Source: Mycobacterium sp. UM_WGJ (GTDB lineage: Bacteria; Actinomycetota; Actinomycetes; Mycobacteriales; Mycobacteriaceae). From it: DNA of 36,062 nucleotides. Shown one piece after another: positions 16,101-22,096 of this stretch; position 1 is the first letter of the stretch; each line of letters starts with the position of its first letter. The DNA is taken from NCBI RefSeq assembly GCF_000455125.1, contig NZ_AUWR01000039.1:1-36062 (forward strand), read 5' to 3'. A program made the translations under genes and the position numbers. The notes under the pieces were generated by a model. That model was not told where the DNA came from, ran no database searches, and saw only the letters and a list, made by a program, of their open reading frames with translations.

Positions 16101-16414
16101 GGCCGTTCTCCGAGCACCTGGGCATCGCCGAGCTGCCGGAGTACCGGATCATGCCCGATCACAAGCAGACCGCGGCGTCGTCGAACCTGTGGCAGTCGGC
16201 CGAGGACGGCGGGCCGTTCATGATCACCCAAGCCATGCTCTGGACCACCACCGTCCCGACCTACCTGCGCAATGACTGGTATCGCGACTGGGGTGCGGTG
16301 GAGGCCTACCACCGTCTGATCCCCGCGAAGGACGCGCCGGACGCCGTCATCGAGCAGGGCACTGTCACTGTTACCGGCTGGAGCCGGCCCGGACCGATTC
16401 GAGCACTGCCATGA
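13142..16414 (+). CDS. embA: Arabinosyltransferase EmbA (arabinogalactan synthesis)
   Basis: EmbA works with EmbB as a membrane heterodimer that builds the branched arabinan of arabinogalactan from decaprenyl-phospho-arabinose. From GTG 13142 it is 1090 aa (M. tuberculosis 1094). The upstream open frame crosses the small ORF and the inverted repeat and is not conserved, so it is discarded. Visible features are the N-terminal helix [17 protein letters not shown], the GT-C motif [12 protein letters not shown] near residue 265, EmbA-specific stretches such as [28 protein letters not shown] and [13 protein letters not shown], and a C-terminal carbohydrate-binding domain ending [12 protein letters not shown]. 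Its stop overlaps the embB start (ATGA), indicating translational coupling with its partner subunit. Confidence 0.96.
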
Positions 16415-19400
16415 CGCGCGAGGTGAAACTGACCCGCTGGGTGGCCGTCGTCGCCGGCCTGGTGGGCTTCCTGCTGTCGGTGGCCACCCCGCTGCTGCCG
16501 GTGGTGCAGACCACCGCCACGCTGAACTGGCCGCAGCACGGCGAGCTGAGCAGTGTGACCGCACCGCTGATCTCGCAGACCCCGATCTCGATGACGGTGA
16601 AGGCGCCGTGCGCGCTGGTGCGCGCACTGCCCGCTGAGGGCGGCACGCTGCTGGCCACCGCGCCGGCCAAGGGCAAGGACGCCGCGCTCAACGGGCTGTT
16701 CATCACCGTCACCGAGAAGCGGGTGGACGTCACCGACCGCAACGTGGTGCTGGCCACCGCGCCGCGGGCCAAGGTGGAAGGCCCCGGCTGCACCGATATC
16801 GAGGTCACCTCGTCGCACGCCGGAACCTTCGCCACCATCGGCGGGATCACCCAGCGCTACGGCTGGCCCGACCCGAACCTGCGCCCGCAGATCGTCGGGG
16901 TGTTCACCGATCTGGCCGGTCCCGCCCCGGCCGGGCTGTCGCTGACCGCCGACATCGACACCCGGTTCTCCACCAAGCCCACGGCGCTCAAGCGGGCCGC
17001 GATCTACGCCGCCATCCTGGCCACCGTGATCGCGGTGCTGGCGCTGTGGCGCCTGGACCGGCTCGACGGGCACCGGATGCACCGGTTGATCCCGAGCCGG
17101 TGGCGATTCTTCTCGCTGGCCGACGTGGCGGTGGTCTTCGGCTTCCTGCTCTGGTACGTGATCGGCGCGAACTCCTCCGACGACGGCTACATCCTGGGGA
17201 TGGCCCGGGTGGCCGATCACGCCGGCTATATGAGCAACTACTTCCGGTGGTTCGGCAGCCCCGAAGACCCGTTCGGCTGGTACTACAACCTGCTGGCGCT
17301 GATGACGCACGTGTCCGACGCCAGCATCTGGATCCGGCTGCCGGACCTGGTCGCCGGGCTGGTGTGCTGGCTGCTGCTGAGCCGCGAGGTGCTGCCCCGG
17401 TTCGGTCCCGCGGTGGCGGCCAGCAAGCCCGCGCTGTGGGCCGCCGGCCTGGTGCTGCTGGCGGCTTGGATGCCGTTCAACAACGGCCTGCGCCCCGAGG
17501 GAATCATCGCCGTCGGCGCGCTGATCACCTGGGTGTTGGTGGAGCGGGCGATCATCTCCAGCCGGCTCACCCCGGCAGCGCTGGCGATCATCTGCGCGGC
17601 CTTCACCCTGGGCATCCAGCCCACCGGGCTGATCGCGGTGGCCGCGCTGCTGGCCGGCGGCCGTCCGCTGCTGCGGATTCTGGTGCGTCGTCACCGTATT
17701 CACGGCACCTGGCCGCTGGTGGCGCCGCTGCTGGCCGCCGGAGCGGTGATCCTGACCGTGGTGTTCTCCGACCAGACCATCCGAGCGGTGCTGGAAGCCA
17801 CCAGGGTTCGCACCGCGATCGGCCCCAGCCAGGCCTGGTACACCGAGAACCTGCGCTACTACTACCTGATCCTGCCGACGGTCGACGGCTCGCTGTCGCG
17901 GCGGTTCGGTTTCCTGATCTGCGCGCTGTGCCTGTTCACCGCGATGTTCATCATGTTGCGGCGCAAGCGTGTTGCCGGTGTCGCCAGCGGCCCGGTGTGG
18001 CGGCTGATGGGCGTCATCCTGGCGACCATGTTCTCGCTGATGTTCGCGCCCACCAAGTGGGTTCACCACTTCGGCCTGTTCGCGGCGGTGGCCGGAGCCA
18101 TGGCGGCGCTGACCACGGTGCTGGTATCGCGACAAGTGGTGCGCTGGTCGAGAAACCGGATGGCATTCGCGGCGGCGGTGCTGTTCATCCTGGCGTTGTG
18201 TTTCGCCACCACCAACGGCTGGTGGTACGTCTCCAGCTATGGGGTGCCGTTCAACGCCGACATGCCGCGTATCGGCGGGATCACCGTCAGCACAATCCTG
18301 TTCGCCATGTTCGCGGTCGCGGCCGGTTGGGCGGCCTGGCTGCACTTCGCCCCGCGTGATCGGGGCGAGGGCCGGCTGGCCCGCGCGTTGACCGCCGCGC
18401 CCATCCCGGTGGCGGCCGGCTTCATGGTGTGCGTGTTCGTCGCCTCGATGGTGGCCGGGATCATCCGCGAATACCCGACCTACTCCAACGGCCTGGCCAA
18501 TGTGCGGGCGTTCGTGGGCGGCTGCGGGCTGGCCGACAACGTGCTGGTGGAGCCGGACCCCAACGACGGTTCGCTGACGCCGCTGCCCGGGGAGTACGGC
18601 GACCTCGGACCGTTGGGCGGTGTGGACCCGGTGGGCTTCACCGCCAGCGGGGTGCCGGAGAAGGTGGTCGCCGAGTCACTGCGGATGCCGATCACCCAGC
18701 CCGGCACCGACTACGACTGGGACGCCCCCAAAAAGCTGAAGACGGCCGGAATCAACGGCTCGACCGTGCCGCTGCCCTATGGTCTGGACCCGGCCCGGAT
18801 TCCGCTGGCGGGCAGCTACAGCACCGACGGTCAACAGGAGTCCAAGCTGACCTCGGCCTGGTATGCGCTGCCCCCGGCCGACGCCGGTCACCCGCTGGTG
18901 GCGGTGACCGCCGCGGGCACCATCGCCGGCAACAGTGTGCTCAAGGGCTACACCACCGGCCAGGACGTGCAGCTGGAGTACGGGGTGCCGGGTCCCGACG
19001 GCGCCCCGGTGGCCGCCGGGCGGCTGGTGCCCTACGACCTGTTCGGCGAGTGGCCGCGGATGTGGCGCAACCTGCGCTACCCGCGGGCGCAGATCCCTGC
19101 CGACGCCGTGGCGGTACGCATTGTGGCCGTGGACAAGTCGCTGAACCCGCGGGACTGGATCGCGTTCACCCCGCCGCGGCTGCCCGAGGTCAAGACCATC
19201 CAGTCCTACATCGGCTCCGACAAGCCGGTGCTGCTGGACTGGGCGGTGGGCCTGGCCTTCCCGTGCCAGCACCCGATGCTGCACGCCAACGGTGTCACCG
19301 AGGTGCCGCAGTACCGGATCACCCCGGACTACAACGCCAAGAAGCAGGACACCGACACCTGGCAGGACGGGGTCAACGGCGGGCTGCTGGGTATCTCCGA

Positions 19401-19575
19401 CATGCTGCTACGGGCACACGTGATGGCCACCTACCTCAATTACGACTGGGGCCGCGACTGGGGCTCGCTGCGTCAGTTCGAGGTGATCACGCCGGCCACG
19501 CCCGCGGAGTTGGAGCTGGGCAGCGCGACGCGTTCGGGCTGGTGGTCACCGGGCCAGATCCGGATCAAGGCCTAG
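16411..19575 (+). CDS. embB: Arabinosyltransferase EmbB (arabinogalactan synthesis; ethambutol target)
   Basis: EmbB is the partner of EmbA in arabinogalactan arabinan synthesis and the main ethambutol target. The protein has 1054 residues (M. tuberculosis 1098). The difference is a shorter N-terminus and loss of a cytoplasmic loop insertion: [20 protein letters not shown] here runs straight into the next helix. The GT-C motif [22 protein letters not shown] is intact. Met264 (codon 17200-17202) corresponds to Met306 of the ethambutol resistance-determining region and is the susceptible-type residue; the preceding Ile-Leu pair is also the susceptible type. The C-terminal domain ends [15 protein letters not shown]. 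It starts at ATG 16411, overlapping the embA stop by 4 bp. It converges on the DUF559 gene, with a hairpin repeat between them. Confidence 0.97.
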
Positions 19576-19586
19576 TTTTTATCCGC

Positions 19587-19643
19587 GAGCGTGCAGAGTT
19601 GTCCGGCATTTCCCCAGGTGAGGGTGGACAACTCTGCACGCTC
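19587..19643. repeat. 57-bp hairpin repeat, copy A (convergent embB / DUF559 junction)
   Basis: Perfect 18-bp arms (19587-19604 and 19626-19643; GAGCGTGCAGAGTTGTCC and complement) enclose a 21-nt loop containing TTTCCCCAGGT. It lies 11 bp after embB and 14 bp after the end of the DUF559 gene, so it can act as a bidirectional terminator. A second copy in the opposite orientation lies at 20621-20677 with 45 of 57 bases identical, and the loop core is fully conserved. Confidence 0.92.
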
Positions 19644-19657
19644 ACAAAGAGTAGGGG

Positions 19658-20539
19658 TCAGGCCACCCGGTCCAGCTGAAACCTGATCCGTCGCAGCAAC
19701 TCGTAGGGCCGGTGCCGCACATCGTCGACGATCACAGCCAGCACCACCCAGCCCGCCTCCTGCAGTGCAGCCCGTCTGACCCGGTCGTAACGCAACGCAC
19801 CCACTCCGCTGTGCCACTCCAGACCGTCGTATTCGACCGCGACCCGGTACGCTGGCCAGGCGAAATCCACTCGCCAGGTCCGGAAATTGCGGTCGACGAT
19901 CTCGTACTGAAGCTCCGGCGCGGGTAGGCCGCCGTCGATCATCACCAGCCGCGTCTCGCTCTCCATCGGTGACTCGGCGCGCGGGTCGGCCAGCGGCAGG
20001 AGGTCACGCACCTTGACGATCTCGCGCCGGCCGGCCTGGCGCTCCGCGGCCGCCCACAGCTCCCGTTCAGTGCAGGTGCCACTGCGCAGCGCGGCGTCAA
20101 GGGTGGCCAGCGCACGCGGTCGCCATAGGCTGCGAGCCGTCTCGATCGCAGTCCAGGCCGGGGCGGTGGCGAGCCTCCCGTCGACCTCCACCAGCGGGGC
20201 GCCCTCCCGGCGGTGCACCACCAGGCCGTCGACCGGCCGGAGCTGTCTGCCTTCAGGATTCAGCACATGCAGCTCCTGGGGGCATTCCACGTCGAAGCCG
20301 TGGGTGGCGGCTGCGGTGGCCAGACAGGTCGCGACTCGACTTCCGGTCAGCAGGTCCAGGCCGCGCAGCCGCAACCCGGCGTCGGGTTCTCCGGCACCGT
20401 AGATTCCGTGCCAAAGTTGTTGCAGCTGTCCGTGTTTGACTGCGTCACGAAGCGCGCGCCGACTCAGATGGTTGAGGGCCTGGCCGCAGGTGACGACGCC
20501 GCCCTGGTGTGCCAACAGCTCGCGGAGGTCTGGGTTCAT
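19658..20539 (-). CDS. DUF559 (Vsr-like) nuclease-domain protein with N-terminal AbiEi-like helix-turn-helix
   Basis: This is a 293-residue protein from ATG 20539. The N-terminus (about 1-50; LAHQGGVVTCGQALN...WHGIYGAG) resembles the AbiEi-type winged helix often fused to this family. The middle (about 60-185) is typical of actinobacterial members. The C-terminus (about 190-293) is a DUF559 domain with PD-(D/E)XK-like residues: E193/E195 in MESETR, D225 in WRVDFAWP, E236 and D238 in VAVEYDGLEWH, then RYDRVRRAALQEAGW. The related Vsr fold nicks mismatched DNA, but activity here is not established. It lies 39 bp downstream of the MFS gene on the same strand. It is bracketed by copies of a 57-bp hairpin repeat, 14 bp after its stop and 81 bp before its start. 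Confidence 0.85.
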   Translation of the reverse strand: MNPDLRELLAHQGGVVTCGQALNHLSRRALRDAVKHGQLQQLWHGIYGAGEPDAGLRLRGLDLLTGSRVATCLATAAATHGFDVECPQELHVLNPEGRQLRPVDGLVVHRREGAPLVEVDGRLATAPAWTAIETARSLWRPRALATLDAALRSGTCTERELWAAAERQAGRREIVKVRDLLPLADPRAESPMESETRLVMIDGGLPAPELQYEIVDRNFRTWRVDFAWPAYRVAVEYDGLEWHSGVGALRYDRVRRAALQEAGWVVLAVIVDDVRHRPYELLRRIRFQLDRVA

Positions 20540-20578
20540 GGGCGCCTATCGTCGGCGCCGGTACCCCATCCCGCCCAG

Positions 20579-22096
20579 TCACCCTGCCGCGGCGCTGTGG
20601 ATAATCCCTGCTCCTTCGCCCACCGTGCAGATTTGTCCGCCCCGACCTGGGGAAACACCGGACGGTTGTGCACGCTCGCGGGAGAGGGACGCCAAGTCCC
20701 GCAGCTCGCGCTCGAGTTCGCCCTGCACACCGGGGATGCCGGTGCCGCGCAGGGAGCACCCGAGGGTCTCCGGTAGGAACCGCAGGGCGACCAACCCGAG
20801 CACCGCGGCGGCCACCAGATATGCCGCCGGAAAGAGCTGCCATCCGGTGTGCTCGATGACCGAGTCGGCCAGCACCGGCGCGGTGCCGCCGAAGACCGCG
20901 ACCGCCGCGTTGTCGGCGATCGCGAAGCCCGCATAGCGGACCTGGGTGGGGAACATCGCCGGGAACGTCGCCGCCACGGTTGCCAGCGGCGCCGCGAACA
21001 GCACACTGAGCACGGTGAATCCGATCAGCGCGCAGGCGAATCCCTGGCCCATCAGCCAGTACATCGGCAGCGCCAACACGATGAACCCGACCAGCGAGCC
21101 GCGCCACAGAGGTTTTCGACCGATCCGGTCCGACCAGGCGCCCGCGAACGGGATGCAGGCCATCATGGCCAGTTCCCCGACCAGCACCACCGCCGTCCTG
21201 CTGCGCTCGTCGAGGCCGGCGGTGGCGTGCAGATAGGTCGGCTGGTAGGTCACCAGGGTGTAGTCGATGATGTTCAGCGCGACCAGCAGGGCGAACGTCA
21301 CCAGGATCGGTCGGGTGTAGTTGGTCAGCAGGTCGACCAGTCGGTCCCAAGCCGATCCCTTGATCGCATCGCAGGCGACGCATTCGGCGAACACCGGCGT
21401 CTCGGGCATCCGGCTGCGCAGCACCAACCCCAGCACGCCTAACGGCAGGGCCAGCAGGAACGGAACACGCCAACCCCAGGCGGCCATCTGGTCGTGGCTG
21501 AGCATCGCCTCCAGCGCCAACACGACGGCACTGCCCAGGACAAAACCACCGACAGCGCCGAACTCCAGGAAACTGCCATAAGTCCCGCGTTTGTGGTCGG
21601 GCGCGCTCTCGGCCATGAACGTCGCCGCGCCGCCGTATTCACCACCGGTGGAGAATCCCTGCACCACTCGCAGGGCGATCAACAGCCCCGGCGCCCACCA
21701 CCCCGCCGTGGCGTAGGTGGGCAACACGCCGATCAATGTCGTCGCCACCGCGATCAGCAGGATGGTCGCGACCAGGACCGACTTGCGCCCGAACCGGTCT
21801 CCGATCGGGCCCCAGATCATGCCGCCCAGCGGCCGAAGCACGAAGGAGACCGCGAAGCCGAGCATGGTCCCGAGGTTGCCGAGCATGTCCGGAAAGAACG
21901 CCTCGGTCAGATAGGTTGCCACGACGGCATATACGCCGTAGTCATACCATTCGGTCGCGTTGCCGATGGCTGATGCCGCAATCGCCTTGCGCAGCAGCCG
22001 TTTACGTTCATCTGACGCACTTCGCGGATGCCGCGCCTGCGACGCCGACGGCCTCGCCGGTAGCAGCAGACTCATCGAGCCTCGCCGCCAGGGCAT
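20579..22096 (-). CDS. MFS transporter, metabolite:H+ symporter (ProP-like) family
   Basis: This polytopic protein of up to 505 residues has about 12 membrane helices. Two MFS signature loops are visible, GDRFGRKS after helix 2 and the internally duplicated SDRIGRKP after helix 8, as well as the family motif FSTGGEYGGAATFMAE. These place it among ProP/ShiA-type proton symporters for compatible solutes or organic acids; the substrate cannot be read. ATG 22096 gives 505 aa, while ATG 22075 (MSLLLPARPSAS), with a purine-rich GGCGAGG upstream, is an equally good start. Oddly, residues 474-492 (ERAQPSGVSPGRGGQICTV) are encoded by copy B of the 57-bp repeat, so the C-terminal tail appears replaced or extended by repeat insertion. 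The DUF559 gene follows 39 bp downstream. Confidence 0.9.
   Translation of the reverse strand: MPWRRGSMSLLLPARPSASQARHPRSASDERKRLLRKAIAASAIGNATEWYDYGVYAVVATYLTEAFFPDMLGNLGTMLGFAVSFVLRPLGGMIWGPIGDRFGRKSVLVATILLIAVATTLIGVLPTYATAGWWAPGLLIALRVVQGFSTGGEYGGAATFMAESAPDHKRGTYGSFLEFGAVGGFVLGSAVVLALEAMLSHDQMAAWGWRVPFLLALPLGVLGLVLRSRMPETPVFAECVACDAIKGSAWDRLVDLLTNYTRPILVTFALLVALNIIDYTLVTYQPTYLHATAGLDERSRTAVVLVGELAMMACIPFAGAWSDRIGRKPLWRGSLVGFIVLALPMYWLMGQGFACALIGFTVLSVLFAAPLATVAATFPAMFPTQVRYAGFAIADNAAVAVFGGTAPVLADSVIEHTGWQLFPAAYLVAAAVLGLVALRFLPETLGCSLRGTGIPGVQGELERELRDLASLSRERAQPSGVSPGRGGQICTVGEGAGIIHSAAAG
20621..20677. repeat. 57-bp hairpin repeat, copy B (inside the 3' end of the MFS gene)
   Basis: It aligns over its whole length with the reverse complement of 19587-19643: 15/18 in one arm, 16/21 in the loop and 14/18 in the other arm. 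The loop core ACCTGGGGAAA is invariant. Its own arms pair less well (10 of 14 in the inner stem), suggesting an older, decaying copy. It is translated as part of the MFS transporter. Confidence 0.85.

What the first reader, a model, noticed from the sequence alone, without database searches (positions are those of the whole stretch)
19587..20677. DUF559 nuclease-like gene bracketed by oppositely oriented copies of a 57-bp hairpin repeat
Copy A (perfect 18-bp arms) follows the DUF559 stop by 14 bp. Copy B, 79% identical and inverted, lies 81 bp before its start. The loop core ACCTGGGGAAA is invariant between the copies although the arms of copy B have drifted, so the loop itself seems to be under constraint. 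A small DNA-processing-type protein next to its own palindromes recalls REP/RAYT systems, where a transposase-like protein acts on flanking hairpins. DUF559 with its Vsr-like fold could recognise, nick or control such hairpins. The pairing is seen in the sequence; function is inference.
Basis: partly seen in the sequence, partly recalled or inferred. Interest (0 to 1): 0.78.

Follow-up and report, generated by a model that had tools for sequence, protein, structure and literature searches.

The report
Nuclease genes bracketed by matching hairpins
Across mycobacteria and their relatives, a family of genes for probable DNA-cutting enzymes usually sits between two matching, often hairpin-shaped repeats that also occur alone elsewhere in the genome, which looks like a new kind of slow-moving genetic unit that resembles REP/RAYT systems but uses an unrelated enzyme.

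Summary
The window gene encodes an AbiEi-like region fused to a Vsr/homing-endonuclease-fold nuclease. In 116 of 151 sampled DUF559 genes of the genus, the 5' and 3' flanks carry the same repeat, often a hairpin; for other genes it is 5 of 255, two of those being transposase genes. In other genera it is 9 of 16.

The two repeats at one conserved locus evolve together, and repeat type follows protein identity. One repeat-gene-repeat block (83% identical) lies at unrelated places in two species and ends at the repeats. Solo copies are dispersed, mostly between genes. Five of ten empty embB-MFS junctions keep one. A DnaA-box-like motif often precedes the gene. Nuclease-core residues are almost invariant.

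So the REP/RAYT analogy holds, but membership fails: no Y1/HUH domain was found, and Y1 genes are missing from 11 of 15 repeat-bearing genomes. Action of the protein on the repeats is inferred. Against: 35 of 151 loci lack a matched pair; strict hairpins flank both sides in only 13 of 81; dispersed copies match a local DUF559 gene in four genomes but not in four others; movement is rare; the loop is not invariant.

The parts
19585..19645 (+). 3'-side terminal hairpin (copy A), 18-bp perfect arms at 19587-19643
19658..20539 (-). DUF559 gene, 293 aa: AbiEi-like region (1-185) plus Vsr/I-Bth0305I-like nuclease domain (188-293) with conserved S190, E193, Q211, D225, E236, D238
20595..20604 (-). 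DnaA-box-like motif TTATCCACAG between gene start and 5' repeat; at <=1 mismatch on the gene's strand upstream of 53 of 150 DUF559 genes and in 1 of 585 control windows
   Evidence: DnaA boxes compared with a table in PMC4285127 (passages)
20617..20681 (-). 5'-side terminal repeat (copy B), arms drifted; lies inside the 3' end of the neighbouring MFS reading frame
16411..19575 (+). embB-type arabinosyltransferase gene (left neighbour, converges on the unit)
20579..22096 (-). MFS transporter gene (right neighbour); embB-MFS junctions without DUF559 found in relatives

Best explanation
The repeat-DUF559-repeat block is one genetic unit whose ends are the palindromic repeats. It belongs to a family that works like a REP/RAYT system but with an unrelated enzyme. 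Proposed mechanism: the AbiEi-like region binds the cognate palindrome and the Vsr-like domain cuts or nicks DNA there. Repair of that break from another copy (copying of the repeat, gene conversion, or deletion between repeats) keeps the two ends alike, leaves solo repeats, seeds dispersed copies and occasionally moves the whole unit. Shown here: paired, gene-specific repeats; their concerted evolution at one conserved locus; a block found at unrelated places with its ends at the repeats; dispersed and solo copies; conserved nuclease-core residues; the folds of both protein parts (predicted model). Inferred: that the protein binds and cuts its own repeat, and the repair step.
Against: No binding or cleavage has been shown. 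35 of 151 loci have no matched pair; 17 of these have at least one strong hairpin and 18 none (L118 is partly an artefact, as its gene is in two pieces). Matched repeats are not all strict hairpins: an ungapped scan found them on both sides in 13 of 81 loci, on one side in 27 and on neither in 41. In four other genomes 0 of 31 dispersed GAGCAGACGC copies match a DUF559 flank of the same genome, and over all 51 listed copies of the eight genomes same-genome matching is no better than other-genome matching (19.6 against 19.1, p 0.96; a first run on 35 of the 51 gave p 0.21). A different test with one copy per genome and pattern, 40 usable of 60, gave p 0.003. Units are mostly inherited vertically (80-90% identity pairs: 19 of 23 syntenic on both sides; no within-genome pair above 68% among loci fetched). 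At a second site the six empty cases keep no intact repeat. Loci were taken from the top of HMM rankings, not at random.
Confidence: 0.57

Rival explanations
1. The palindromes are operators: the AbiEi-like region binds the 5' palindrome to repress its own gene, and the nuclease acts elsewhere (for example in defence). The 3' copy and dispersed copies are by-products.
For: AbiEi-like fold over residues 1-185 and AbiEi profiles; AbiEi antitoxins autoregulate through promoter inverted repeats (PMC7319586, start of abstract in the listing). The inner end of the 5' repeat lies a median 62 bp before the start of the protein match.
Against: Does not explain a matched copy near the stop codon in 116 of 151 loci, concerted evolution of both, a relocated block with both ends, or tens of dispersed copies, of which only 2 of 60 sampled lie between divergent genes.
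Confidence: 0.19
2. The hairpins are transcription terminators that happen to sit at gene ends; the DUF559 gene is an accidental neighbour.
For: Of 60 sampled dispersed copies 23 lie between converging genes, 27 between codirectional ones, 2 between divergent ones (crude ORF caller). A mycobacterial terminator class called TRIT is known (recalled; named in a passage of PMC3526491; its sequence was not seen).
Against: Other genes in the same loci rarely have matched flanks (5 of 255), and none of the five shows a pair of such hairpins. No run of T follows copy A on either strand (read). Gene-specific sequence on both sides of one gene is not needed for termination.
Confidence: 0.09
3. A Y1/HUH (RAYT or IS200/605) transposase elsewhere in the genome moves the repeats and DUF559 is a passenger.
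For: REP palindromes are served by RAYTs in other bacteria (PMC2817692, passages); Y1_Tnp genes occur in 4 of 15 genomes tested.
Against: No Y1_Tnp match at E 0.01 in 11 of 15 repeat-bearing genomes, including this one and several rich in dispersed copies (G007 61, G006 49, G053 26, G072 24, G124 23). Passenger status does not explain one repeat type per DUF559 gene.
Confidence: 0.05
4. Ordinary transposable element whose DUF559 protein is a conventional transposase acting on terminal repeats, now mostly decayed in mobility; solo repeats are miniature derivatives.
Against: No recent multiplication among loci fetched; ends better in direct orientation in 54 and inverted in 62 of 116 loci; no DDE domain; a PD-(D/E)XK enzyme alone does not join strands in systems I know (recalled).
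Confidence: 0.1

Closest known systems
REP/RAYT (REP-associated tyrosine transposases; REPINs)
   Same: Gene flanked closely by two palindromes, one near the stop; dispersed extragenic palindromes; each gene distinct with its own repeat type; mostly vertical inheritance (compared with passages of PMC2817692, and PMC3116915).
   Different: No Y1/HUH domain; enzyme is an AbiEi-Vsr fusion; repeats about 57-65 bp rather than the 20-40 bp given for REPs (PMC3733652, start of abstract in the listing); ends direct or inverted, where RAYT genes are described as always flanked by inverted REPs; found here in Mycobacteriales.
Vsr-like homing endonuclease I-Bth0305I
   Different: Not in an intron; AbiEi-like N-terminal region; bracketed by palindromic repeats.
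AbiEi antitoxin (type IV toxin-antitoxin)
   Different: Neighbours are embB and an MFS gene, not a nucleotidyltransferase toxin; fused to a nuclease.
DUF559 / MTES_1575 / Vsr nucleases
   Same: Pfam and structure matches.
   Different: I know of no described stand-alone form that sits between palindromes (recalled; literature searches are told under Tried and rejected).

Membership tests
REP/RAYT | gene flanked on both sides by REP-like palindromes | tested here: met
   matched flanking repeats in 116 of 151 genus loci and 9 of 16 outside; strict ungapped hairpins on both sides in 13 of 81
REP/RAYT | Y1/HUH tyrosine transposase domain | tested here: not met
   Pfam scan of the window protein gives MTES_1575, AbiEi_4 and DUF559 only at E<=0.001; Vsr-type and AbiEi-type folds
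REP/RAYT | dispersed extragenic copies of the palindrome | tested here: met
   5 of 60 sampled copies inside an ORF against 909 of 1200 random positions
REP/RAYT | each gene single-copy and distinct in its genome | tested here: met
   highest within-genome identity 68% among loci fetched, which is part of each genome's set for most genomes
REP/RAYT | protein and repeat trees agree | tested here: inconclusive
   repeat similarity follows protein identity (Spearman 0.35 over 4257 non-syntenic pairs); no tree comparison was made
REP/RAYT | GT(A/G)G head on the REP | not tested
   no systematic test; the repeats printed were not scanned for it
Classical IS element | DDE transposase | tested here: not met
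   no such Pfam match in the window protein
Classical IS element | target-site duplication | not tested
   no clean recent insertion with an intact empty site was examined
Vsr-like homing endonuclease | nuclease fold | tested here: met
Vsr-like homing endonuclease | resides in an intron | tested here: not met
   window gene lies between embB and an MFS gene
AbiE type IV toxin-antitoxin | adjacent nucleotidyltransferase toxin gene | tested here: not met
   window neighbours are embB and MFS
Intrinsic terminator | hairpin followed by a T run | tested here: not met
   copy A, both strands, read

The most novel reading that the evidence does not exclude
A new class of bacterial hairpin-ended unit, present throughout Mycobacterium and in other Mycobacteriales, in which an AbiEi-Vsr fusion nuclease cuts its own palindrome and spreads it by break repair, possibly timed by DNA replication through a DnaA-box-like site in its leader. 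Many of the dispersed intergenic palindromes of these genomes would be its products, including orphan families left after loss of their gene.
Probability: 0.43. Interest if true: 0.92.

Novelty: categorically new. Interest (0 to 1): 0.84.

Why it matters
REP palindromes and their transposases are a long-standing puzzle in Gram-negative bacteria. An independent, non-homologous system with the same layout in mycobacteria would show that palindrome-enzyme partnerships evolved more than once. It would also give a function to a very common uncharacterised gene family (59 of 59 genus genomes searched; 104 of 120 in the order), help explain families of dispersed intergenic hairpins in mycobacterial genomes, and make the REP question testable with a different enzyme.

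Tried and rejected
Rfam search of the region: six matches up to E 5, all below gathering scores; one of them (Antizyme_FSE) overlaps copy B and is most likely chance. Recent horizontal gain at the window locus: four-fold-site identity to MYC017 is 0.75 for embB, 0.67 for DUF559 and 0.58 for MFS, so no sign of it. Plasmids and phages: 3 plasmid records (Tsukamurella, Nonomuraea) and 1 phage record, all below 40% identity, so no close relative in those two collections. RNA-model searches of whole genomes were lossy (150 candidates scored per genome; the L006 copies are absent from the listing but found), so patterns were used instead. The operator and terminator ideas are kept as rivals.

Dialect test in full: for eight genomes 51 dispersed GAGCAGACGC copies were listed. 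One search used 35 of them, picked by hand; one search used all 51. G114 (8 of 8), G106 (5 of 5), G069 (3 of 4) and G048 (2 of 3) match a DUF559 flank of their own genome at score >=20; G117 (0 of 7), G020 (0 of 2), G094 (0 of 2) and G124 (0 of 20) do not. DUF559 loci used per genome were 13, 10, 5, 8, 8, 6, 7 and 7 in that order, against 13, 11, 8, 13, 9, 7, 7 and 8 matches found (some matches are two pieces of one gene). G069 and G124 have more copies (12 and 23) than were listed (4 and 20). G102 and G007 were listed too but left out: no DUF559 locus of G102 and only one of G007 had been fetched.

Own genome: six DUF559 genes; four with matched flanks (window, L006, L009, L336), one with a 5' hairpin only (L008), one not testable at a contig end (L337).

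Literature, held open-licence library only: held DUF559 as a term; 2 of 2, 20 of 82, 15 of 2,458 and 15 of 55 papers were listed, and none of those listed was about DUF559 with palindromes, judged from titles and starts of abstracts. Searches asked about terminators, repeat letters, RAYTs, mycobacterial palindromes and DnaA boxes. RNIE (PMC3152330) is not held, so it is open whether TRIT terminators, or the Myt-1 and Myt-8 families of PMC2267715 (passages), are the same repeats. PMC3733652 does not mention Mycobacterium or DUF559 (find).

Full report
What is in the window. Copy A (19587-19643) and copy B (20621-20677) are as described and bracket a 293-residue gene on the minus strand. Copy A lies between two converging genes (embB and DUF559); copy B lies in the 3' end of the MFS reading frame. 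The named contigs that share the copy A pattern are Mycolicibacter. A covariance model from seven copies showed that a second DUF559 gene of the same genome, L006, is also bracketed by two related repeats. A hairpin scan then showed strong hairpins of different sequence beside two further DUF559 genes, L008 and L009.

Is it general? The family is present in 59 of 59 genus genomes searched. I used DUF559 loci from the top of that ranking and from ten further genomes; duplicate loci were dropped before counting. Hairpins scoring 13 or more occur at 0.82 per kb within 400 bp of 81 DUF559 genes and at 0.028 per kb elsewhere in the same loci (53 and 17 hits). Strict ungapped hairpins (score 12 or more) stand on both sides in 13 of the 81, on one side in 27 and on neither in 41. 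A more telling measure is whether the two flanks of one gene match each other. They do (score >=20) in 65 of 81 loci, against 11% of flank pairs taken from different genes. For the same geometry slid along the loci the figure is 7 of 360, and for other genes 5 of 255. Of those five, two are transposase genes (DDE_3; HTH_38 with rve), one is a tandem ketoacyl synthase duplication, and two look like similarity inside coding sequence. With more loci the count is 116 of 151, 54 better in direct and 62 better in inverted orientation, and 9 of 16 in other genera of the order. Counting 60 groups of loci that share at least one flank, 47 have a paired case. Of the 35 unpaired loci, 17 have at least one strong hairpin and 18 none.

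The repeats. Aligned lengths have median 70 bp, including some flank; the repeats printed are mostly about 57-65 bp. Some are almost perfect palindromes, others have complementary ends and an imperfect middle. The inner end of the 5' copy lies a median 62 bp before the start of the protein match; the 3' copy lies close to the stop. In other families of the order the letters differ but the layout is the same.

Concerted evolution and specificity. In 26 loci at one conserved position (next to a gamma-glutamylcyclotransferase-like gene), the 5' and 3' repeats of one locus score 36.4 on average and those of different loci 23.8 (permutation p 5e-5; own partner best in 15 of 26). If the two copies had simply been inherited from an old duplication, these would be about equal. 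Among non-syntenic pairs from different genomes, repeat similarity is flat (8.5-8.9) up to 55% protein identity and rises to 14.4 at 55-65% and 19.8 at 65-75%. Paralogues in one genome have different repeats (scores 8-12).

Movement. L074 and L229 (87% protein identity, two species) share a block that is repeat-gene-repeat (83% identical over 1129 columns), with no other match at E 1e-3 apart from the repeats themselves. In the 5' repeat 65 of 66 bases agree and in the 40 bases before it 12. L090 against L094, L097 and L226 gives blocks of the same extent at 69-72% identity; the last three look alike upstream, so this is one case, and L090 has a further solo repeat 1.2 kb away that also matches. 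Most close pairs are syntenic (80-90% identity: 19 of 23 on both sides, 3 on one, 1 on neither; 70-80%: 83 of 142 both, 20 one, 39 neither) and no within-genome pair exceeds 68% among loci fetched. So the unit moves rarely, as reported for RAYTs (PMC3116915, passages).

Empty sites. In ten relatives embB lies next to the MFS gene without DUF559 (L131-L133, L136, L137, L140-L143, L145). Five carry one repeat of these families there: L137 and L142 as clear hairpins (scores 15.2 and 16), L133 and L136 as model matches, and L132 by the GTGCGTGT-CGACACGCC core with only a weak model match. Five carry none. Four more relatives (L134, L135, L138, L139) were not usable because embB was not in the fetched stretch. 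In L137 the solo repeat and its right flank resemble copy B, judged by eye. At the second locus 14 of 16 genomes have comparable context: six intact units, one cut by a contig end (G102), one reduced to a C-terminal piece (G308), and six empty with no intact repeat; one of these (G146) keeps what looks like a scrap of a repeat end, suggesting loss.

Dispersed copies. GAGCAGACGCN{20,50}GCGTCTGCTC occurs in 76 of 98 genomes with up to 83 copies; the reversed pattern in none of the rows shown. GTGCGTGTNTGNNNNNCGACACGCC occurs in 45 of 98, up to 20; reversed in none. Taking one copy per genome and pattern (60), 5 lie inside an ORF (random positions: 909 of 1200), 23 between converging genes, 27 codirectional, 2 divergent, 3 unknown (crude ORF caller). 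In nine genomes with full lists, 5 of 45 hits of the second pattern lie within 300 bp of a DUF559 gene against 0.11 expected. The interior sequence of the first type is specific to the genome. In four of eight genomes 18 of 20 copies match a DUF559 flank of that genome; in the other four 0 of 31 do. Over all 51 the same-genome match is no better than the other-genome match (p 0.96). A test with one copy per genome and pattern gave p 0.003 on 40 usable of 60 (18 had no DUF559 locus fetched, 2 lay at a DUF559 gene). So repeat families without a cognate gene exist, as REPs without their RAYT do (the table legend of PMC2817692 marks the cases in which the cognate rayt is present).

A third element. 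Between the 5' repeat and the gene often lies TTATCCACAG or a near variant: 53 of 150 upstream regions with at most one mismatch on the gene's strand (9 on the other), 1 of 585 control windows, 0 of 227 regions upstream of other ORFs, 0 of 60 surroundings of dispersed copies. The core TCCACAG is in 48 of 150 genus and 7 of 16 other loci against 6 of 2178 windows. The variants resemble DnaA boxes listed for several bacteria (TTATCCACA, TTGTCCACA, TGATCCACA; table in PMC4285127, passages). A link to replication is a guess.

Mechanism and ranking. I favour binding by the AbiEi-like region and cutting by the Vsr-like domain, with repair from another copy. That would explain alike ends, solo remnants, dispersed copies and rare relocation without a strand-joining transposase. 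An operator role of the 5' palindrome is the best rival and may be true in addition. A Y1 transposase in trans is unlikely: PF01797 has no match in 11 of 15 repeat-bearing genomes including this one. By homology this is not a RAYT; by layout it is close to one. I call it categorically new because enzyme, repeats and host group are all unrelated to the palindrome-gene units I know, with the caveat that most subscription literature could not be searched. The confidence was lowered slightly after the complete 51-copy test.

Noticed in passing
window 20579-20690: The MFS reading frame runs through copy B, so its C-terminus is encoded by the repeat; several relatives have a stop codon inside the matched frame (G085, G146, G022, G094, G197, G308).
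   Followed up: partly
L003 7259-7321: A third repeat of the window type lies beyond the MFS gene in MYC017, with a changed loop.
   Followed up: partly
L222 (G103:C1:5501568, 5502625, 5503666): Three repeats of one type about 1.05 kb apart; the first interval holds a DUF559 gene, the second a 313-aa ORF that was not identified.
   Followed up: partly
G103:C1:4005713 and 4005878; G125:C95:62172 and 62367: Inverted pairs of repeats 165 and 195 bp apart, reminiscent of REPINs; not checked for genes.
   Followed up: no
L118, L274, L324: DUF559 genes in pieces or reduced. L118 still has repeat-pattern hits on both sides, L324 a repeat-like stretch, L274 no strong hairpin. Described only.
   Followed up: no
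L327, L328, L329, L330, L331: Y1_Tnp genes exist in 4 of 15 of these mycobacteria (G076, G044, G023, G121); whether they have palindromes of their own was not examined.
   Followed up: no
L090, about 7.1 kb on the gene's strand: A solo GAGCAGACGC hairpin lies about 1.2 kb from a DUF559 unit of the same repeat family.
   Followed up: no
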